Part shown: positions 3,968-54,540 of the stretch, in pieces
Layout: every line of letters starts with the position of its first letter
How positions within the stretch are numbered: the first letter of the stretch is position 1
Assembly: GCF_017549005.1 (NCBI RefSeq)
Contig: NZ_JAFYYT010000054.1
Location: 24,871-88,870 of the forward strand
Source of the DNA: Ruminococcus sp.
Lineage (GTDB): Bacteria > Bacillota > Clostridia > Oscillospirales > Ruminococcaceae
DNA length: 64,000 bases
Reading direction: 5' to 3'
Notes under the pieces: generated by a model
Told to the model about the DNA's origin: nothing
Database searches by the model: none
Seen by the model: the letters and a program-made list of their open reading frames with translations, nothing else
Program-made: the position numbers and the translations under genes

Positions 3968-5392
3968 TTATGTCCATGAGATATTGTAAAGCGTCACTTC
4001 ATGCGCTCCGAGAGAAGCGGCATTGTCGATATTTCCCAGCTGGAACTTTATATCCGCCGCCATATCGGCTGCAAAGGTGACATCGAAGCTGAAATGCTTC
4101 TTCTCTGGAGTTATCTCCACTTTTTCATCGAGATAGCGCGTGTAGGAGCTGTCCTCGGCAGTGACCACCATATTTCTCGGGACAGTTGAGCTCACATCGA
4201 ATGAAAGGGTGTGTTTTTCGCCTGCCTTTACCTCACGCGAGCGGAGAAGTCCCATAACTGCGTACTCAAGCTCGCCTGCGTTTTTGATATCCACAACGGT
4301 ACAGCCCTCCTTGTTGACTACGGAAGCCTCAGCGCCCTCGATATAATTATCGAGGGAAAGGGAAGTCATCTCCGTAGGACTGAAATCAGAGCCTTTTTTC
4401 TCATAGACCCTGACGTAGTCGATATCGAAGTGCTTCTCGCCGTCGGCAAATGTGGCAGGTTCAGCGTAAATACCGTCGATACCGTCGAAGTGACCGCCCA
4501 CTGCAAGGTTGAGTATCACATAGAAATTCTGGTCAAAGGGGGCAGGGTAGCTGAAGCCCTCGGAGTACCAGTCCGACTGAGTGCTGTACAGGGCGCCGTC
4601 CACGTACCAGCGTATCTCGCCGCGTTCCCATTCGATGCTGTAGGTATGCCAGTTCTGAGTACCGTCGCCGTTTTTGAAGATATAGTCGTTGGTGAGGTAG
4701 GTATTGTTCGGCCATGCACCGCCGAAGTGTATAGTTCCGCAGATCTTGTCGGGAGTGCTGCCCCAGCCTTCCATTATGTCTATCTCGCCTGATGAAGCCC
4801 AGCCGCCGTAAGCGCTGTCTTCGGGGAGCATCCATATGGCAGGCCACAGTGACTTGCCCGAATCGCACCTTGCGCGGACTTCGATCTTTCCGCCGCACAC
4901 CGAGAATTTATGCTGAGTATTTATCCTTGCCGAGGTGTAGTCGTAGCTGCCCTGCTTTTCGTCAACCCAGCTCTCCTTACGGGCGGCAATGGTAAGGATA
5001 CCGTCCTTTACCGCAGTATTCTGCGATGTATAGAACTCCTGCTCGTTGTTGCCCCAGCCGTTGGTTACGTAGTTTCCGCTGTCGTCGAGCTTCCAGTTGC
5101 CCAGTTCGTATGACCACTTGCTCTCGTCGAGCCTGTCGCCGCTGAACTCGTCGCTCCAGATGAGCTCATAGTCATTATCCGCGGAGCGTTCCGTCTCATT
5201 ACCAAGGAGAAAGCTGCCGAGAACGCGGAGCTCCTCTGCGGAAGCGCCTTTTTTTCTTGCGCTTACCATGTCGAATATATCAACGATACCGTCACCGTTG
5301 AAGTCAGTTTTTGGACTGCCGCCCGCATATGCCGGAAATGGCACGGAAGCAAGAAGCAGCGCCGCAGCTGTCAGTATTTTCAAGGCTTTCAT
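3968..5392 (-). CDS. Secreted GH16 beta-glucanase with half-dockerin and C-terminal CBM-like module
   Basis: 474 residues from the ATG at 5392, which has GGAGG at good spacing; an upstream in-frame ATG has none. Order: signal peptide (1-24, ending AYA); one dockerin-type calcium loop (DFNGDGIVD, about 30-38) and a helix but no second loop; GH16 catalytic domain (about 75-345) with the motif EIDIME, whose E203, D205 and E208 are nucleophile, assisting Asp and acid/base; a C-terminal beta-rich module (about 350-474) resembling CBM4/9. GH16 enzymes of this type cut beta-1,3 or mixed beta-1,3-1,4 glucans such as laminarin or lichenan. The exact substrate is not visible. It is monocistronic. The short dockerin segment at the N terminus is unusual and may not bind a normal cohesin. 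Confidence 0.9.
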   Translation of the reverse strand: MKALKILTAAALLLASVPFPAYAGGSPKTDFNGDGIVDIFDMVSARKKGASAEELRVLGSFLLGNETERSADNDYELIWSDEFSGDRLDESKWSYELGNWKLDDSGNYVTNGWGNNEQEFYTSQNTAVKDGILTIAARKESWVDEKQGSYDYTSARINTQHKFSVCGGKIEVRARCDSGKSLWPAIWMLPEDSAYGGWASSGEIDIMEGWGSTPDKICGTIHFGGAWPNNTYLTNDYIFKNGDGTQNWHTYSIEWERGEIRWYVDGALYSTQSDWYSEGFSYPAPFDQNFYVILNLAVGGHFDGIDGIYAEPATFADGEKHFDIDYVRVYEKKGSDFSPTEMTSLSLDNYIEGAEASVVNKEGCTVVDIKNAGELEYAVMGLLRSREVKAGEKHTLSFDVSSTVPRNMVVTAEDSSYTRYLDEKVEITPEKKHFSFDVTFAADMAADIKFQLGNIDNAASLGAHEVTLYNISWT

Positions 5393-5436
5393 GATTACCT
5401 CCGTATCTGTAGTGTATTGCCGTGCTTTACGACTTA

Positions 5437-5465
5437 ATTTTAGCATTAAAACAGGGCAAAGTCAA
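5437..5465 (-). promoter_or_regulatory. Promoter of the GH16 gene
   Basis: TTGACT (5460-5465) and TAAAAT (5437-5442) with a 17-nt spacer on the minus strand. Confidence 0.65.
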
Positions 5466-5558
5466 GAAATATCTCTCTGAACTATGTACAAAATTACTGC
5501 TTTTCGTAGCAAAACTAATGAATAAAGACTGCATTTCGGCGACTTTTTCAAATCATGC

Positions 5559-5587
5559 TTGCAATCGGGCAGACACCGTGATATAAT
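5559..5587 (+). promoter_or_regulatory. Promoter of the lipoprotein gene
   Basis: TTGCAA (5559-5564) and TATAAT (5582-5587), 17-nt spacer. It implies an untranslated leader of about 110 nt. Confidence 0.75.
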
Positions 5588-5596
5588 GTATCGTGT

Positions 5597-5673
5597 CGCA
5601 GGAATGGGATTTCCGGCAAATTTTCGGAAATACCCCGAAAAACGGAAAGCTCCTGCGTAAACTATAGACGTTT
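5597..5673 (+). promoter_or_regulatory. Structured 5' leader of unknown type
   Basis: A 7-bp stem (5597-5603 with 5651-5657) closes over an inner hairpin of ten pairs (5606-5615 with 5625-5635, one bulged A). An unpaired purine-rich strand (5637-5650) and a small AAAC/GTTT hairpin (5659-5673) follow. I could not match it to a known riboswitch class. It lies between the promoter and the ribosome-binding site, so it could control translation. Confidence 0.4.
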
Positions 5674-5705
5674 GGAATAATAACGATCCTATTGGAGGTC
5701 ATTTT

Positions 5706-6362
5706 ATGAAGAAAATTGTAACGTCAATAGCTGTCTGCTCACTTGCGGTATGTGCTTTTGTATCGTGCGGAAGCAAGTCCGAGAGCAAGAAGAAGTCTGC
5801 CGACATTGTCGGTAAATGGGCGCTCAGTGGAGTTGACAATCAGGAAGTCGAAAGCGCGGGACTCATCTTCCATGAAAACGGAAAGGGTTCCATGTATGAG
5901 GACGCCTCATCAATGTTCCACTTTGAGGACGAGGGCTTCAGCTTGGGCGGTTCTGTAATTTCCAACGATTACGTAAAGGAAGAGGGCGACACCGTTACGG
6001 TAGACGTAATGGGCGAGCAGATCCTCGTTATGAAGAAGCTTGGCGGCAATGACGGCTACTACGGAAAATACACTCTTGAGGGCGGCAAGCTTTACGACAA
6101 CTTTGCCGACAGCATGAAGGAGGAGACCGAAAAGAACGGCAAGCCTCTTGACATCACACTTAATTTTGAAGGTCCTCACAGCGAGCTTATCTTCAACAAC
6201 ATATTCACATATACAATCGACGATAAGAAGCTCAATATCTCAGGCTCTTCCGCAATATTCAACAGCGACGGAAGCGCTATGTCGGGAGATTACACCATAA
6301 AAGGCGACACTCTCACAATCACTGACTCAAAGAAGACAGACACTCTTACAAGAGTCAAGTAA
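5706..6362 (+). CDS. Lipoprotein with lipocalin-like repeat pattern, unknown function
   Basis: 218 residues. A lipoprotein signal peptide (lipobox FVSC, Cys21) is followed by a Lys/Ser linker. The rest is beta-rich and starts with IVGKWALSG, a pattern seen in lipocalin-like/DUF5640-type extracellular proteins. The ends of the two halves look alike (GKYTLEGGKLY near 118 and GDYTIKGDTLTI near 198), suggesting related beta units. TTGGAGG precedes the ATG. It has its own promoter, a folded leader and a strong terminator. Function unknown. Confidence 0.8.
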   Translation: MKKIVTSIAVCSLAVCAFVSCGSKSESKKKSADIVGKWALSGVDNQEVESAGLIFHENGKGSMYEDASSMFHFEDEGFSLGGSVISNDYVKEEGDTVTVDVMGEQILVMKKLGGNDGYYGKYTLEGGKLYDNFADSMKEETEKNGKPLDITLNFEGPHSELIFNNIFTYTIDDKKLNISGSSAIFNSDGSAMSGDYTIKGDTLTITDSKKTDTLTRVK

Positions 6363-6374
6363 TCATACATCAAA

Positions 6375-6410
6375 AAAACAGGCAGATACGTACAGGTATC
6401 TGCCTGTTTT
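6375..6410 (+). terminator. Intrinsic terminator
   Basis: 15-bp perfect stem (6375-6389 with 6396-6410) with the CAGGCAGATAC core and a TTTT end, 12 nt after the lipoprotein stop. Confidence 0.9.
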
Positions 6411-6427
6411 GCTGTAGCGGAAAAAAG

Positions 6428-6458
6428 CAGGCTGAAGAAGGCGCTCTTCTTCAGCCTG
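6428..6458 (-). terminator. Terminator of the metY-flavodoxin operon
   Basis: 13-bp stem (6428-6440 with 6446-6458). On the minus strand it is followed by CTTTTTT. Confidence 0.88.
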
Positions 6459-6465
6459 TTCTGAA

Positions 6466-6996
6466 TTATCCTTTAATATAAGCCACAATAGGCTCGATAT
6501 ACTTTTTATCGCTGAAGTCGCAGGACGAGGCGACGTGTTCTATCATAGCCTTGTCGGTTTCGGACTTGTTCTTCTTGCCCTTGAGCATAGCCGCAAAGGT
6601 CTTCATGAGCATTTTCGAGCCGAAGGACATCTTTTCGTAGCAAAGGCCGCCTACGCAGTAGAAAGCTTTTGCGACCTTCTTCTGCTCGTCGGTGAGCGTT
6701 TTGTCGAGAATGCCCTGTATTCCCGAGTACTCGGCAGGACTTGCTCCCACGCCGAATATAGCCAGCTTTTTGCCCTTCCACTTGTCAAGTCTCGAGGTGA
6801 ACCAGTCGGCCTTTGCGATCTTTTCCATAGACAGCCAGCTGCCGAAGATTATGGCGTCGAAGTCATTGAAGAAGCTGTCCTCCTTTTTGGAGGCTTCCTT
6901 CATGGTAATAGTCGTGCCGCCGAGAGCTTCGGCAAGCCATTCGGCATATTTCTGCGTGAAGCCCGTCTGCGAGAAGTATACTATCAGAGTTTTCAT
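6466..6996 (-). CDS. Flavodoxin-domain protein
   Basis: 176 residues with a flavodoxin fold. The FMN phosphate loop is at the N terminus (YFSQTGFTQKYA), followed by IIFGSWLSM and IFGVGASPAEYSG at the other flavin-contact loops. It resembles the Flavodoxin_5/HemG-like group rather than small electron-carrier flavodoxins, and is likely a cytoplasmic FMN-dependent redox protein. The start is 14 nt after the metY stop, so the two are co-transcribed. A role in supplying electrons for sulfur metabolism is only a guess from position. Confidence 0.85.
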   Translation of the reverse strand: MKTLIVYFSQTGFTQKYAEWLAEALGGTTITMKEASKKEDSFFNDFDAIIFGSWLSMEKIAKADWFTSRLDKWKGKKLAIFGVGASPAEYSGIQGILDKTLTDEQKKVAKAFYCVGGLCYEKMSFGSKMLMKTFAAMLKGKKNKSETDKAMIEHVASSCDFSDKKYIEPIVAYIKG

Positions 6997-7010
6997 TGTT
7001 TATCACCTGT

Positions 7011-8276
7011 TCAGATAGCTGCGAAAGCCTGCTTGAGGTCGTCGAGGATATCGTCGATATTTTCAAGGCCAACGGAAAGTCTGATAAGACCGCCGTTTAT
7101 GCCGCAGGCAACGAGCTGCTCGTCTGTGAGCTGACGGTGAGTTGCACTTGCAGGGTGGAGCACACAGGTGCGGATATCTGCAACGTGTACTTCATTGGAA
7201 GCAAGCTTGAGTGAATCCATGAACTTGATAGCGGTATTTCTGCCGCCCTTGATGATGAACGAGATAACGCCGCTTGTACCGCCGGGGAGGTACTTCTTTG
7301 CGAGCTCGTGGTACTTGTTTCCGGCAAGACCGGGGTAATTTACAGACTCTACCTTATCGTTTGCCTCGAGGAACTCAGCAACGGTCTTAGCGTTCTCGCA
7401 GTGCTGCTTCATACGGATAGGAAGTGTCTCAAGGCCGAGATTGAGGTAGAATGCGGACTGAGCTGAAGGATAGCAGCCGAAGTCTCTCATGAGCTGCATT
7501 CTTGCCTTGATGATGTAAGCAGCCTTGCCGTAAGCCTTTGTGTAGACAGTGCCGTGGTAGCTTTCATCGGGCTCTGTGAACTCGGGGAACTTGCCGTTTG
7601 TCCAGTCGAAATTGCCCGAATCAACGATAACACCGCCGCCCTGAACAGCATGACCGTCCATGTACTTTGTGGTGGAGTGGATAACTATATCGGCTCCGTA
7701 CTCGAAAGGTCTGCAAAGGATAGGGGTAGGGAATGTATTGTCGATGATGAGCGGAACGCCGTTCTTGTGAGCGATATTTGCGAACTTTTCTATATCGAAT
7801 ACAGAAAGTGCTGGATTTGCGAGAGTTTCGCCGAAAACAGCCTTGGTGTTCGGCTTGAAAGCAGCCTGTATCTCTTCCTCCGGGGCGTCGGCGTCAACGA
7901 AAATGCACTCGATGCCAAGCTTCTTGAGGGTGAAAGCGAAGAGATTAACGGTACCGCCGTAGATAGTGGCTGCCGATATGAAGCTGTCGCCTGCCTTGAG
8001 GATATTGAGCAGTGAAAGAAGCGAAGCTGCCTGACCGCTGGAGGTACACATAGCTCCGACGCCGCCCTCGAGGGCATTGATCTTTTCCTCAACTGCCATA
8101 ACGGTGGGGTTCTCAAAGCGTGAGTAGATAAGGCTCTTTGTAGGATCATCGAATACAGCGGCAACGTCGTCTGTTGAGTCGTATACGTAGGTAGTGCTCT
8201 GAACAATAGGCACTACTCTCGGCTCTGTATTCTTTGGGGTGTAGCCTGCGTGCAGGCATTTTGTTTCGATTTTCAT
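7011..8276 (-). CDS. metY: O-acetylhomoserine sulfhydrylase (MetY type)
   Basis: 421 residues, the normal length for O-acetylhomoserine aminocarboxypropyltransferase, a PLP enzyme that makes homocysteine from O-acetylhomoserine and sulfide. Features are TKCLHAGY at the N terminus, SSGQAA and YGGT for phosphate and ring contacts, LIIDNTF, and the Schiff-base lysine K204 in HSTTKYMDGH. GGAGG lies about 10 nt before the ATG. It is the middle gene of HD-metY-flavodoxin, with gaps of 30 and 14 nt. No S-box or T-box was seen in front of it. Confidence 0.93.
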   Translation of the reverse strand: MKIETKCLHAGYTPKNTEPRVVPIVQSTTYVYDSTDDVAAVFDDPTKSLIYSRFENPTVMAVEEKINALEGGVGAMCTSSGQAASLLSLLNILKAGDSFISAATIYGGTVNLFAFTLKKLGIECIFVDADAPEEEIQAAFKPNTKAVFGETLANPALSVFDIEKFANIAHKNGVPLIIDNTFPTPILCRPFEYGADIVIHSTTKYMDGHAVQGGGVIVDSGNFDWTNGKFPEFTEPDESYHGTVYTKAYGKAAYIIKARMQLMRDFGCYPSAQSAFYLNLGLETLPIRMKQHCENAKTVAEFLEANDKVESVNYPGLAGNKYHELAKKYLPGGTSGVISFIIKGGRNTAIKFMDSLKLASNEVHVADIRTCVLHPASATHRQLTDEQLVACGINGGLIRLSVGLENIDDILDDLKQAFAAI

Positions 8277-50203: not shown

Positions 50204-52294
50204 TCAGCCAATTGTAACATAAAGATATGGCGAATCTTTTACTGTTAACTTGAAATCGTCATTGAACTCAGCGTTCTTATCGAGTTCGATAAGGATATGC
50301 CAGAAAGTAACAGCCATATCGCCGCTGTTTTGCTGGCGTTCGATCTCGATCTCATCTTTTTTCACCTGAGTTACCCTATATGTATATGGAGCCGAAAAAT
50401 TTTCCTTCAGGATAATTGCCACAAGTTTATTTTTACTGAAAAAATCATCTTGATATCTCTTGATCTCTTCGTTGTAGCTGTCCACATCAGAGTATTTTGA
50501 AAACATAGGATCATTGGACATAAATACCTGATTTTCAGCCACATATTTTTCAAACTCCTCGCGGTTCGAGATAACCCATGTCTTAGGGCAGCTGCCGTCG
50601 TACTGTCCGCTGTTCTGTAAATAGCTGATCCTGAATTCATAAGAACCGTTTTTATTTGTAGTGACCGTTGCAGAAGTTGTTGAGCTTGCTGCTGTTGTGG
50701 AAGAGGTTATGGCGGTAGTTGTAGTTGTAGCTGAAGTGCTCGCAGTGGTAGTAGTTGTGGTTGTCGTTGTAGTGGTGGTAGTTGCAGTCGTAGTCGCAGC
50801 AGTCGTTTCGGCGGGCTCACTGAGCTTTTCAGCGCCAAGCAGGAACCTCTGCAGGCATACAAGATCGGCAACATTAACGGTATTGTCGCCGTTTACATCG
50901 GAATTGATGGGCGGAACGGAATTGTCCGAGAGCAGTTCGAGTATCGCTTTTCTTAGCAGTGTGAGGTCAAATACGTCGATTACTCCGTTGCAGTTGATAT
51001 CTCCGCGCAGATTGGAGCGCACCTCATTTTCGGCAGAAGTGAAAGGCTTTGTGCCCTTTAAGCCGGCATAAGCGTTGTCCATATAAAAGTTTCCGGTATA
51101 ATCCGGAGTTTCAATGAACAGGGTCATGTGCTTTGCGTCTTTCGGGATAGTATATGCGTAGTTTGAAAGCTCTGTCCATTTTCCGCTTTCAGCAGTGACT
51201 TCCGCAATGGTGTCATACTGATATCTTCCTTTTTGATCCATATACTGGAGCTCAAGGGCAAAATCCGCAGAATCGGCGCAGTCCTGCATAACGTAAACGC
51301 CGAAGCTGTAGGTCTCGTCCGGGAACACTCTTATTCCGCTGAGGTCTATGCTTGGTCCCTGCCAGGACTCGCTTCTGTTGCTGACAAGCAATGAATTTGT
51401 ACCCTCGTAGCTGACGCTGCTTTTTTTCAGAGACTCAAAGTCACGGGAATCCCAGTCATCAATGTATTGGTCGAAGGTATGCATGAATAAGTAACTTTCC
51501 TTCAGATCAGAAGTATTGCTTATATGACCGTACTGCTTTTTGTAAACGGTCAGCGGAGAGCTGTCCCTGCCCTCTCCCATTTTAATACTGTTGAGCTTTG
51601 CACTTCCGCTTGATCTGTAGCCTTCTATTTCAAATACCGCATTGTAAAGGGTTCCCGATGTATCAAGTCCGAGAACTCCCCACGAGTCAAAATGCTTTGA
51701 AATGTCTATGCAGCCGCTGACATGATTGGTCGTGTTGTTTTTTACGGTGTTTTTCGAGCGGACGCTCCAGTAACGCTGTACAGTGGCAGGTCCGTCAATT
51801 CCGGGCTGGTTGTAATAATTCGTTTTGAACACTTCATATTCGTGACCGTTAACGACTGTAGTACCCAGCAGCTGACTGTCCAACGAAGGAGATGGTCTCC
51901 AGCTGCCCCAGCCTTCGACGATGAAGTATTCCACCATAGGTGTTCTTGTCCAGCCGTATGCGCCGAAAAAAGCATTTCCTTTCGGAGTGAATTCAAGGTC
52001 GTAGCTGAAGGAAACATTATTGAAGTACTTGTAATTCTTTTTCTGGGAATCGTAATTGATTCCCATATCTGCGATAAAGTTCTCAACGTCATTCCATGAC
52101 AAAGTGAAAGAGCTTTCACCGGGTTCAAACTCCACATCGCCCTCATCGTTCTGGTTCCAGAGTTCATATTCCAGTCCGCCGATAACGTTCCTTTCCAGTC
52201 TGTCGGCGGCAGAAGCCGTGAAAGGAACGGAAGCTGTCAGTACTACTGCGGAAACTACAGCTCCCAGTATCCTTTTCGATACATTTGCTCTCAA
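50204..52294 (-). CDS. GH11 endo-xylanase with CBM22, dockerin and C-terminal extra domain
   Basis: 696 residues from the TTG at 52294. GAGGAG lies 8 nt before it; the GTG three codons upstream abuts that site. Signal peptide 1-29 (PFTASA). GH11 jelly roll about 38-240, with FFGAYGWTRTPMVEYFIVEG (nucleophile E122) and FEIEGYRSSGSA (acid/base E224): both catalytic Glu are present. CBM22 about 267-415. Dockerin about 430-492 (DINCNGVID and DVNGDNTVN loops). Thr-rich linker about 495-548. A C-terminal domain of about 145 residues (KNKLVAIILKENFSAPYTYR ... MAVTFWHILIELDK) follows, with a pattern like PrcB-type beta domains. It cuts xylan backbones and docks to a scaffold. The role of the last domain is unknown. 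Confidence 0.92.
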   Translation of the reverse strand: MRANVSKRILGAVVSAVVLTASVPFTASAADRLERNVIGGLEYELWNQNDEGDVEFEPGESSFTLSWNDVENFIADMGINYDSQKKNYKYFNNVSFSYDLEFTPKGNAFFGAYGWTRTPMVEYFIVEGWGSWRPSPSLDSQLLGTTVVNGHEYEVFKTNYYNQPGIDGPATVQRYWSVRSKNTVKNNTTNHVSGCIDISKHFDSWGVLGLDTSGTLYNAVFEIEGYRSSGSAKLNSIKMGEGRDSSPLTVYKKQYGHISNTSDLKESYLFMHTFDQYIDDWDSRDFESLKKSSVSYEGTNSLLVSNRSESWQGPSIDLSGIRVFPDETYSFGVYVMQDCADSADFALELQYMDQKGRYQYDTIAEVTAESGKWTELSNYAYTIPKDAKHMTLFIETPDYTGNFYMDNAYAGLKGTKPFTSAENEVRSNLRGDINCNGVIDVFDLTLLRKAILELLSDNSVPPINSDVNGDNTVNVADLVCLQRFLLGAEKLSEPAETTAATTTATTTTTTTTTTTTTASTSATTTTTAITSSTTAASSTTSATVTTNKNGSYEFRISYLQNSGQYDGSCPKTWVISNREEFEKYVAENQVFMSNDPMFSKYSDVDSYNEEIKRYQDDFFSKNKLVAIILKENFSAPYTYRVTQVKKDEIEIERQQNSGDMAVTFWHILIELDKNAEFNDDFKLTVKDSPYLYVTIG

Positions 52295-52341
52295 TTGGAT
52301 CACTCCTCTTTGAATAGAAATATGTTTTTGAATACATCAGT

Positions 52342-54540
52342 TTATTCTTTGACGCTGAATTTAAGCTCCTTGAAATCAATATATCCCGATGACTCCGAAG
52401 CTTCAACAGAGATACAGAGCTTATGGACAAGATGAAGTGACTTATCATCTTCGCCAATACACTGCAGCAGTTCTTCAAGGTTGAAGCTGTTTTCTAAATG
52501 GCTCATTTCACCGTCAGCAATGGGATCGTCCTTGCGGTAAAGCTCTGTGAGCGGTACAGCATTATCGTTATAGATATCCGAAGAAAGCGACTTTACCATG
52601 TAATACTCGCGGCCGTTCAGCACAACAATAGACGGAGTAACATCGCCTTTAAGGATATCGTCATTATCCTGTCCCGTTCTGCCTTCGACAATGCGGAAGT
52701 AGAACAGATCATCTCCTTTGCAGTATTCACCGCTCATTACCACATCGCATTTACCCGTTGCTTTTATGTCTGCGGAGTAACTGATATCAAAGTCAGAACT
52801 CGGCTTTTTGTATATTGTATGTGAATAGTCATCATAGGCATGACAGGTATATTTTTCCGTGTCATTCCACTCGGCTGTAAAGTCGTTGTTTTCTCTTAAC
52901 GCCGTCTTTATCCTGTCATCATTGATCATATCGGCAGCTATAGTGAATCTAAGCGCACCGTAGCTGTATAAAAATGATTCACGGTCTCCGATGAGCAGTT
53001 TTGTTTCTTCATATGAAACAGGTATCTCATCTGAAATTCTGAGAACGTATTTTGTCAGGAGCACAAGGTCGCTGACATCGCTTCTGAGATCGCCGTTGAC
53101 ATCGCCTGCTGTTTCGATCCTGCATGATTCCGCAGAATCTATCACAGCCCTGCGGCACACGGCGATATCAAGACTGTCCGTAACTCCGTCGCCATTGAGA
53201 TCACCGCTTGAATAGGCTTTATATATTTTGTTGCCGGAATTATAATCGGATTTTCTGTTTGCAATACAGAAGTCATCTACATAATAATCCGCAGGAGTCT
53301 CGGGGATAAGAGCGATCCTGTATCGGTGGCGGATATTATGGGCGTATTCAAAGGCAATATCCTTTATTTTAGTCCATTGTCCCGCTCTGCAATATCTTTT
53401 GCCGAGGCGATCTGTCTTGCGGTATTCAAAGGGAAGGTCGGAGTATTCGATGAGTTCTATATCAAATACCGCGTCTTTTTTCGAGTTGTTGAATACATTT
53501 GCTCCCGTGTAGTAAAATCTTTCACCTGTACTCGGAGAATTACTCAGATCATAGGGATCAAGCTCATAGTAAAACGCAGGGATCGAATCCCCGTCAGATG
53601 ATGAAATATGTATCGAATGCTCTCCGCCGTAAAAAACATCGTCAGATGTTTCGGAAACAGCCTTGTCTCCGAAAGCGCCGGCCTTACCGCTTTCATCTTC
53701 AAAGCCGTATTCAAGAATAGTTCCATAATCATCGGCGCGCAGCGGATCATGCTCCTCATACGGCAATACTGCCTTAGTCGGGCCGAATACTTCCTCGTCA
53801 GAGATATCATAGCTTATATCCAGGGAATTGAGCTTTGCCGAACCGGAGCTGTAATAAGCATCCACAGATAAGCAGATATTGTAAATAGTTCCCAGCTCAA
53901 AGCCGGCGTCGTCCCATGCCCTGAAATGAGCGGCAACGTCTACAGTGCCCTCAGTATGCCCTTCCTTGTCAGTGCCGAATGGCTCTTTTCTTGCAACGCT
54001 CCAGATATACCGGAAATGATCGGTATTGCCCATCTGCGCTGAATTTATACTGTACAGGTCATAAGTTACGCCGTCAATCTTTACAGTTGTCGTTTTTGAC
54101 TTGTCCATTCCGGATGGGACCCAGTCATTGTACGTTTCAACTATATAAAAGTTTGTTTTGGGCTCGGTGAACCAGCCGCTTACTCCTGCAAAGTCATTTT
54201 CACCGACAGTGAGATCGAGATCGTATGTCACCTTGCATTCATTGACCTGATATGCGCTTATGTTCTCATCTTTCAAGTACTTTCCTTTGAACATCCTGCA
54301 ATCATGGATGCCTTTCCAGCTTGCAGTAAAACCGTTGTGTCCGGAGTTTGTGAAACTTGCATCGCCATAATCGTCCCAGTTCCATATTTCGTATGAATAA
54401 CCGTCGAGTTCGCCGTTTTCAGCATAAGCTTCGGCATTTGCTGTGATAGTACTGCACTGAACAAAACTGCCGTTTACCGCACCGCAGGCACAGAAAGCCG
54501 CACTAAGTGACGCAAAAAGTTTTTTTATTGTTGAATTCAT
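52342..54540 (-). CDS. Dockerin protein with two GH11-like modules lacking the standard catalytic pair
   Basis: 732 residues from the ATG at 54540 (GGGAGGGA upstream). Signal peptide about 1-38. GH11-like module 1 about 42-245: its strands align with the neighbouring xylanase (IWNWDDYGDASF, SGWFTEPKTNFYIVET, VDAYYSSGSAKLNSL), but the nucleophile Glu is N130 and the acid/base Glu is D227. A CBM22-like module (about 275-428) and a dockerin (445-505, DLNGDGVTD and DVNGDLRSD) follow. Module 2 (about 520-732) keeps FYFRIVEG, LNGREYYMVK and SVEASESSGYIDF; the nucleophile site is Y614, and E713 is kept. It shares a 47-nt gap and strand with the GH11 gene. It is likely carbohydrate-binding or altered in activity. 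Confidence 0.85.
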   Translation of the reverse strand: MNSTIKKLFASLSAAFCACGAVNGSFVQCSTITANAEAYAENGELDGYSYEIWNWDDYGDASFTNSGHNGFTASWKGIHDCRMFKGKYLKDENISAYQVNECKVTYDLDLTVGENDFAGVSGWFTEPKTNFYIVETYNDWVPSGMDKSKTTTVKIDGVTYDLYSINSAQMGNTDHFRYIWSVARKEPFGTDKEGHTEGTVDVAAHFRAWDDAGFELGTIYNICLSVDAYYSSGSAKLNSLDISYDISDEEVFGPTKAVLPYEEHDPLRADDYGTILEYGFEDESGKAGAFGDKAVSETSDDVFYGGEHSIHISSSDGDSIPAFYYELDPYDLSNSPSTGERFYYTGANVFNNSKKDAVFDIELIEYSDLPFEYRKTDRLGKRYCRAGQWTKIKDIAFEYAHNIRHRYRIALIPETPADYYVDDFCIANRKSDYNSGNKIYKAYSSGDLNGDGVTDSLDIAVCRRAVIDSAESCRIETAGDVNGDLRSDVSDLVLLTKYVLRISDEIPVSYEETKLLIGDRESFLYSYGALRFTIAADMINDDRIKTALRENNDFTAEWNDTEKYTCHAYDDYSHTIYKKPSSDFDISYSADIKATGKCDVVMSGEYCKGDDLFYFRIVEGRTGQDNDDILKGDVTPSIVVLNGREYYMVKSLSSDIYNDNAVPLTELYRKDDPIADGEMSHLENSFNLEELLQCIGEDDKSLHLVHKLCISVEASESSGYIDFKELKFSVKE

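What the first reader, a model, noticed from the sequence alone, without database searches (positions are those of the whole stretch)
52342..54540. Dockerin protein built from two degenerate GH11 modules
The first module aligns strand by strand with the active GH11 xylanase encoded next door, but the nucleophile Glu is N130 and the acid/base Glu is D227. The C-terminal module, beyond the dockerin, keeps the motifs FYFRIVEG and SVEASESSG, has Y614 at the nucleophile place and keeps E713. GH11 retaining enzymes need both Glu residues, so this is a candidate pseudoenzyme, non-catalytic xylan binder or new activity carried on the cellulosome. Its expression with the active xylanase suggests a helper role.
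Basis: partly seen in the sequence, partly recalled or inferred. Interest (0 to 1): 0.75.

Follow-up and report, generated by a model that had tools for sequence, protein, structure and literature searches.

The report
Dead xylanase modules on rumen cellulosome
A fibre-digesting Ruminococcus encodes a cellulosome protein built from two xylanase-shaped modules that have lost their cutting residues; it belongs to a conserved group of such dead enzymes, found so far in one genus, that probably hold on to plant-wall sugars rather than cut them.

Summary

It is not a lone oddity. I aligned 22 members with this architecture, all found in one genus. Both catalytic Glu are present in 2 of 21 readable first modules and 0 of 21 C-terminal modules. 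One clade mostly lost the nucleophile, its sister mostly the acid/base (Gln in 5 of 10). Whole-protein dN/dS is 0.17-0.28 in 14 overlapping close pairs (none with P0001), so these proteins are maintained. The same genome has 6 more proteins with degenerate GH11 modules; in these and P0001, 14 of 17 modules lack a complete pair, beside 16 intact GH11 modules.

Best reading: a non-hydrolytic cellulosomal pseudoenzyme, probably a glycan binder; no ligand is shown. Expression with the xylanase is unmeasured: the gap is 38 bp, but an active GH11 gene was seen near only 5 of 23 family loci.

The parts
52342..54540 (-). P0001, 732-aa secreted dockerin protein: GH11* - CBM22-like - dockerin - GH11*
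   Evidence: ORF and translation; Pfam; relatives of the same architecture
54430..54540 (-). Signal-peptide region (aa 1-37)
   Evidence: Judged by eye from the sequence; no predictor was run
53806..54417 (-). Module 1, GH11 fold (aa 42-245), N130 at the nucleophile and D227 at the acid/base position; Pfam match aa 47-237
53233..53757 (-). CBM22-like module (aa 262-436)
   Evidence: Profile comparison with the CBM22 region of active GH11-CBM22 proteins, 97.1%, E 7.8e-11; not detected by Pfam
53041..53205 (-). Type I dockerin (aa 446-500)
   Evidence: PF00404 36.3 bits, cut-off 22.9
52345..53007 (-). C-terminal module, GH11 fold (aa 512-732), Y614 at the nucleophile and E713 at the acid/base position
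50204..52303 (-). P0002, neighbouring GH11-CBM22-dockerin protein with both catalytic Glu; likely TTG start at 52294 after AGAGGAG (by eye)

Best explanation
P0001 is a catalytically dead, cellulosome-bound xylanase relative. SHOWN by computation: both GH11-fold modules lack the Glu pair that the retaining GH11 mechanism needs; relatives keep the same module order; close pairs of relatives evolve under purifying selection; P0001 has a dockerin. INFERRED: the dockerin docks it on the scaffoldin beside active xylanases; module 1, which keeps a cleft Trp (W53; its place in the -2 subsite is recalled) but has a remodelled thumb, holds xylan or a related glycan without cutting it; the CBM22-like and C-terminal modules add further contacts; the whole protein works as a targeting and retention arm of the cellulosome on hemicellulose. 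The repeated acid/base Glu-to-Gln state in the sister clade is a change made on purpose by crystallographers to trap substrate in GH11 (recalled), which is the main reason to prefer binding over other roles.
For: Fold and homology of both modules. Catalytic loss: both Glu in 2 of 21 readable first modules (L061, L074) and 0 of 21 C-terminal modules. Clade I (with P0001) has the nucleophile Glu in 2 of 11 and Glu or Asp at the acid/base site in 12 of 12; clade II has the nucleophile Glu in 8 of 10 and acid/base Glu in 2 of 10, with Gln in 5. On a 27-row tree the fewest changes are 5 at the nucleophile, 4 at the acid/base site and 3 for the complete pair taken as one state (several forks unresolved, gains and losses cost the same). 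Cleft residues kept: W53 equivalent Trp in 19 of 21, Phe in 2; clade II keeps the Tyr before the nucleophile strand in 9 of 10 and Arg and Pro after it in 9 of 10 each. Selection: whole-protein dN/dS 0.17-0.28 in 14 pairs over 68% identical, C-terminal module 0.16-0.45 (the pairs share sequences and L072 is a broken frame). Control: of modules scoring 180 bits or more with the active-GH11 HMM, 39 of 40 keep both Glu (the set holds near copies). Cellulosome: own genome has at least 141 dockerin and 10 cohesin matches at E 0.001, 8 of the 10 over the cut-off.
Against: No binding datum of any kind. In clade I, with P0001, the canonical cleft is damaged beyond the Glu: the Tyr before the nucleophile strand is lost in 11 of 11, and no member of either clade has the Pro-Ser/Gly-Ile thumb motif (0 of 22), so binding in the old cleft may be weak or changed. 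The C-terminal module keeps only 22% of the residues near-invariant in active GH11 modules. P0001 has no relative over 68% identical, so its own dN/dS is unknown. Three relatives have broken frames (L060, L062, L072). L061 and L074 keep both Glu in module 1.
Confidence: 0.5

Rival explanations
1. Decoy for plant xylanase inhibitors: the dead GH11 modules soak up cereal and grass inhibitor proteins (TAXI, XIP types) and so protect the active xylanases on the same scaffold, as the inactive GH12 paralogue XLP1 does for XEG1 in Phytophthora sojae (recalled).
For: GH12 shares the fold. PMC5814044 lists XLP1, XEG1 and GIP1 in the legend of its decoy figure (passages only; mechanism recalled). TAXI and XIP inhibit competitively at the active site (PMC9739030, passage) and are largely distributed in monocots (abstract start).
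Against: XIP-type loops enter the groove between thumb and palm of GH11 (PMC9739030, passage), and the thumb is remodelled in 22 of 22 members. It does not explain the CBM22-like and strongly diverged C-terminal modules. The inhibitor-facing surface as a whole was not measured.
Confidence: 0.1
2. Altered catalysis: the modules are enzymes with a new mechanism or substrate, using the remaining acid (D227 in clade I; the nucleophile Glu in clade II) or other residues.
For: Glu or Asp at the acid/base position in 12 of 12 clade I members and the nucleophile Glu in 8 of 10 clade II members; low dN/dS.
Against: The two clades mostly keep opposite halves of the pair, and the lost position is filled by unrelated residues (N, L, Q, S, K in clade I; Q, H, D in clade II). 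In the C-terminal module neither position is conserved.
Confidence: 0.12
3. Structural spacer or protein-protein module: the GH11 folds only position the dockerin or bind other cellulosome proteins.
For: Features not found in the neighbour, H264, P266, D328 and P329, are each 22 of 22. The best conserved residues of the C-terminal module, W558 and Y646, match positions conserved in active modules too and so look like fold residues.
Against: Retention of the cleft Trp in 19 of 21 and of Tyr, Arg and Pro cleft positions in clade II would be unexplained.
Confidence: 0.15
4. Decaying gene under relaxed selection, an ordinary dead duplicate of a xylanase.
For: Three of the relatives found have broken frames. 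C-terminal module dN/dS reaches 0.45 in one pair.
Against: Whole-protein dN/dS 0.17-0.28 in 14 pairs and 0.16-0.23 in 7 pairs of other degenerate GH11 proteins; same architecture at 27-48% identity to P0001; the degenerate modules lie outside the clade of active modules, so the state is old.
Confidence: 0.05

Closest known systems
GH11 endo-xylanases (clan GH-C), e.g. 1f5j, 2f6b, 7ayp and the neighbour P0002
   Same: Fold of both modules; sequence homology; module 1 in the same GH11-CBM22-dockerin order as P0002
   Different: No complete catalytic Glu pair in either module; thumb motif and several cleft residues lost
R. flavefaciens multimodular xylanases such as GH11-CBM22-Doc-GH11-CE1, GH11-CBM22-Doc-GH11-CE3 and GH11-GH11-Doc (PMC4081043 and PMC2930009, table passages)
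   Same: GH11 on both sides of a dockerin, or tandem GH11 with dockerin
   Different: Those tables list the modules as GH11; word searches of the main texts found no 'inactive', 'degenerate', 'pseudo' or 'catalytic residue'. Whether some listed modules are dead was not tested: those proteins were not fetched
XLP1/XEG1 of Phytophthora sojae (GH12)
   Same: Dead paralogue of an active clan GH-C enzyme (recalled)
   Different: Oomycete, decoy role (recalled; legend passage only); not compared here
GH28 pseudoenzymes of leaf beetles (PMC6549527, abstract)
   Same: Maintained inactive members of a plant-wall hydrolase family that matter for digestion
   Different: Different fold, eukaryote, no scaffold
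Carbohydrate-binding modules of cellulosomes
   Same: Non-catalytic modules on dockerin proteins
   Different: Defined by shown binding; here binding is not shown and the fold is that of a hydrolase

Membership tests
GH11 fold/homology, module 1 | GH11 sequence profile and fold | tested here: met
GH11 fold/homology, C-terminal module | GH11 sequence profile and fold | tested here: met
GH11 enzyme, module 1 | Two catalytic Glu | tested here: not met
   N130 and D227
GH11 enzyme, C-terminal module | Two catalytic Glu | tested here: not met
   Y614 and E713
GH11 enzyme, module 1 | Thumb with Pro-Ser/Gly-Ile tip (motif recalled; present in P0002) | tested here: not met
   Absent in P0001 and in 22 of 22 members. 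One profile alignment puts a lone Pro at the tip position in L058 and L074
GH11 enzyme | Endo-xylanase activity | not testable with these tools
   Needs protein
GH12, C-terminal module | Clan GH-C fold with GH12 sequence profile | tested here: inconclusive
Type I dockerin protein | Dockerin profile over Pfam's cut-off | tested here: met
   PF00404 36.3 bits, aa 446-500; 9 of 9 members of A2 match at E 0.01
CBM22 | CBM_4_9/CBM22 profile | tested here: inconclusive
   Pfam match in 0 of 9 members; profile comparison with neighbours' CBM22 97.1%, E 7.8e-11
CBM (any family) | Shown binding to a carbohydrate without catalysis | not testable with these tools
   No binding data
Pseudoenzyme | Enzyme fold with catalytic residues lost | tested here: met
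Pseudoenzyme | Gene maintained by selection | tested here: met
   For relatives: dN/dS 0.17-0.28 in 14 pairs. Not testable for P0001 itself
Inhibitor decoy (XLP1-like) | Binds the inhibitor of its active paralogue | not testable with these tools
   The remodelled thumb speaks against it

The most novel reading that the evidence does not exclude
Rumen Ruminococcus cellulosomes carry a genus-restricted radiation of degenerate GH11 modules, about as many as live ones in this genome (17 degenerate-type modules, 14 without a complete catalytic pair, against 16 intact), in proteins with one to four such modules, many with a dockerin. They form a new class of glycan-recognition modules derived from a hydrolase and account for part of the large set of dockerin proteins of unknown function in R. 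flavefaciens.
Probability: 0.4. Interest if true: 0.75.

Novelty: new variant of a known kind. Interest (0 to 1): 0.6.

Why it matters
R. [quoted passage not shown] If part of those are dead GH11 modules, an old open question becomes testable module by module; FD-1 itself was not examined here. It also warns that family counts can overstate xylanase capacity, since some degenerate modules pass Pfam's GH11 cut-off, and it offers a natural series of GH11 folds in which the nucleophile or the acid/base was removed separately.

Tried and rejected
Rejected: that the C-terminal module is a non-GH11 fold; that the protein is a recent dead copy of its neighbour; that the module matches are chance.

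Led nowhere or little: literature searches for GH11 with pseudoenzyme (2 papers, neither on inactive GH11 by title), 'inactive GH11' (2 papers on other subjects by title and abstract start), 'GH11-like' with Ruminococcus and cellulosome (0 papers), and searches gave no paper on inactive cellulosomal GH11 in what I saw (listings; only the first 20, 12 and 10 of 65, 136 and 54 papers were listed). Only an open-licence library was searched. NCBIfam named nothing in P0001. The CBM22 aromatic position is ambiguous: MAFFT puts Y325 (Tyr or Phe in 22 of 22) opposite the neighbour's Trp, profile comparison puts another residue there; no claim is made. The Gln of the thumb strand is absent in all 22, but the active neighbour has Arg and L013 Thr there, so that loss is not used as an argument. 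The wider census (of 129 modules under 180 bits, 24 have both Glu and 3 are unreadable) rests on an iterated local HMM, is approximate for the weakest modules and holds near copies; only the P0001-family counts are offered as firm. In one search, A4 matches under about 50 bits include ordinary GH11 modules, so I count 22 loci over 58 bits in 13 of 125 genus genomes (17 of 125 had any match at E 1e-6). In a sample of 297 genomes of the family (126 genera) only the window's own genome matched (5 of the 297 are listed as this genus). Orders and phyla beyond the family were searched only through two clade I peptide patterns.

Full report
WHAT IS THERE. The ORF at 52342-54540 (minus) encodes 732 aa from an ATG preceded by GGGAGGG. 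Pfam finds GH11 at 47-237 (87.9 bits, cut-off 27) and a type I dockerin at 446-500 (36.3 bits, cut-off 22.9). Against solved structures the protein matches GH11 xylanases (2f6b, E 1.2e-28), with N130 opposite the nucleophile Glu and D227 opposite the acid/base Glu. P0001 is collinear with its neighbour P0002 (GH11-CBM22-dockerin, both Glu present) at 26% identity (single-comparison E 7e-41).

THE FAMILY. Relatives were collected from one scan of genome contigs (9 loci, from Ruminococcus MAGs of sheep and yak omasum, an uncultured Ruminococcus MAG, R. flavefaciens Y1 (two loci), MA2007 and UBA1190) and from genus searches. Twenty-two members were aligned. L060, with a broken frame, was left out; L072 lacks the first part of module 1 in its frame, and L030 (= L062) lacks the C-terminal module in its frame. 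In module 1 both Glu are present in 2 of 21 readable members (L061, L074). Clade I, with P0001: nucleophile position N, L, L, L, Q, E, E, S, S, K, K (11 readable); acid/base E in 7 and D in 5 of 12. Clade II: nucleophile E in 8, L in 1 and K in 1 of 10; acid/base Q in 5, H in 2, D in 1, E in 2 of 10. In the C-terminal module both Glu are present in 0 of 21 (nucleophile position E in 2, acid/base position E in 5). On a tree of 27 first modules, with six active modules as the other side, clade II has support 100/98 and clade I 87/82; the fewest changes are 5 at the nucleophile, 4 at the acid/base site and 3 for the complete pair as one state. Several forks are unresolved, so these are counts on that tree only.

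OTHER CLEFT RESIDUES. Of 41 positions near-invariant in 24 dereplicated active modules (chosen for having both Glu), clade I keeps 67%, clade II 66% and the C-terminal module 22% on average. Clade II keeps the Tyr of the strand before the nucleophile in 9 of 10, and Arg and Pro in 9 of 10 each; clade I lost that Tyr in 11 of 11. The Trp equivalent to W53 is kept in 19 of 21, Phe in 2. The Pro-Ser/Gly-Ile thumb motif of the active neighbour is in 0 of 22. The subsite roles of these residues are recalled, not from a call.

SELECTION AND AGE. In 14 pairs over 68% identical, dN/dS is 0.17-0.28 for the whole protein and 0.16-0.45 for the C-terminal module (pairs share members, and one member, L072, is a broken frame). 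P0001 has no relative this close. Seven pairs of other degenerate GH11 proteins give 0.16-0.23. On a 112-module tree, the 24 active modules form one group (99) with a single nested exception, L075, which has the nucleophile Glu but Gly at the acid/base site; the other degenerate modules lie outside it; the 20 C-terminal modules form one group (98) (quick method, some long branches). The degenerate state is therefore old.

HOW FAR IT REACHES. The own genome has 29 PF00457 matches. Sixteen are strong, and all 16 modules have both Glu; the 13 weak ones belong to proteins in which iterated profiles find 17 modules in 7 proteins (three each in L009_11556, L009_1481, L010_12350 and L012, two in L011 and P0001, one in L009_13846), 14 of 17 without a complete pair. 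Four of the 7 proteins have a dockerin over Pfam's cut-off (P0001, L009_13846, L010_12350, L011); L009_1481 and L012 have matches below it and L009_11556 none. Five further genomes show weak GH11 matches beside the strong ones; of ten such proteins from them scanned with Pfam, 6 have a dockerin over the cut-off, 2 below it and 2 none. One three-module protein is 64-91% identical between genomes. In the wider set, 39 of 40 modules scoring 180 bits or more keep both Glu, against 24 of 129 below that, 3 of them unreadable (near copies included, weakest alignments approximate). The C-terminal module profile finds 22 loci over 58 bits in 13 of 125 genomes of the genus, and only the window's own genome in a 297-genome sample of the family. 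The own genome has at least 141 dockerin matches (150 of 245 candidates were scored) and 10 cohesin matches, 8 over the cut-off and 5 in one protein, so a scaffold for docking exists.

CONTEXT. P0001 and P0002 lie on one strand with 38 bp between them (47 bp to the likelier TTG start), and no terminator-like site is reported between them. Of 23 family loci an active GH11 gene is in the fetched flank in 5: the window, L099, L097 and L060 (gaps 1.0-1.7 kb; the three share the neighbouring ABC-type gene and so are one locus in three genomes) and L061 (8 kb). Degenerate multi-GH11 genes lie near two more, L068 and L073, and near L061. Fetched flanks ran from 0.1 to 16 kb, so absence is weak evidence. 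In R. flavefaciens Y1 (L073) the relative follows a gene that looks like the window's 46822-49995 gene (by eye). Expression was not measured.

HOW IT WORKS. Most likely a scaffold-docked, non-hydrolytic glycan holder: shown are fold, loss, conservation in relatives and the dockerin; docking, binding and ligand are inferred. Against a decoy for plant xylanase inhibitors stands the remodelled thumb, since XIP-type loops enter the groove between thumb and palm (PMC9739030, passage). Against new catalysis stands the variety of residues at the lost positions. Against decay stands dN/dS in the relatives.

NOVELTY. Dead glycoside hydrolases are known (GH28 in beetles, PMC6549527, abstract; XLP1, recalled, with PMC5814044 legend passage). 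Tandem and dockerin-flanked GH11 architectures are listed in R. flavefaciens (PMC4081043, PMC2930009, PMC2721979, passages); their main texts do not hold the words inactive, degenerate, pseudo or catalytic residue. I saw no report of a dead GH11 family on the cellulosome (listings, mostly their top rows, open-licence papers only). FD-1 has 118 dockerin proteins with 155 putative unknown domains (PMC2930009, passage); part may be of this kind, which was not tested on FD-1.

Noticed in passing
G000 contigs C5, C31, C35, C37 (loci L015, L018-L021): Several active GH11 N-terminal modules of this genome score almost alike and start with the same residues, and contigs end within or soon after these genes, which suggests homogenised repeats that broke the assembly.
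   Followed up: no
L028 vs L068; L063/L101 vs L100: Module 1 is far more alike than the C-terminal module in some pairs (dS 0.03 against 0.46; 0.24 against 1.2-1.4), which suggests exchange of module 1 between relatives.
   Followed up: partly
L060 9183-11354, L062 8179-10333, L072 about 4942-7107: Three relatives of P0001 have broken reading frames; whether by decay or by assembly error is not known.
   Followed up: no
L012 1586-4864 (minus), aa about 780-1092: The C-terminal 300 aa of a three-module degenerate GH11 protein (with an SH3-like stretch and an unnamed domain) recur in many other large proteins; 53 of 125 genus genomes match that alignment, most listed matches covering this part only.
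   Followed up: partly
window 50204-50626 (P0002 aa about 560-699): An unnamed C-terminal domain of the neighbour xylanase seems to recur at the C-termini of L013 2945-5059 and of the degenerate GH11 protein L009 13846-15993 (by eye).
   Followed up: no
window 52294-52303: P0002 probably starts at TTG 52294 after AGAGGAG, not at GTG 52303 (by eye).
   Followed up: no
L075 1208-3139 (G034): A GH11 module inside the active clade has the nucleophile Glu but Gly at the acid/base site: a separate loss.
   Followed up: no
L086 1466-4549 (G031), aa 452-548: One module of a four-module degenerate GH11 protein also has a weak GH12 match (20.7 bits, below the cut-off).
   Followed up: no
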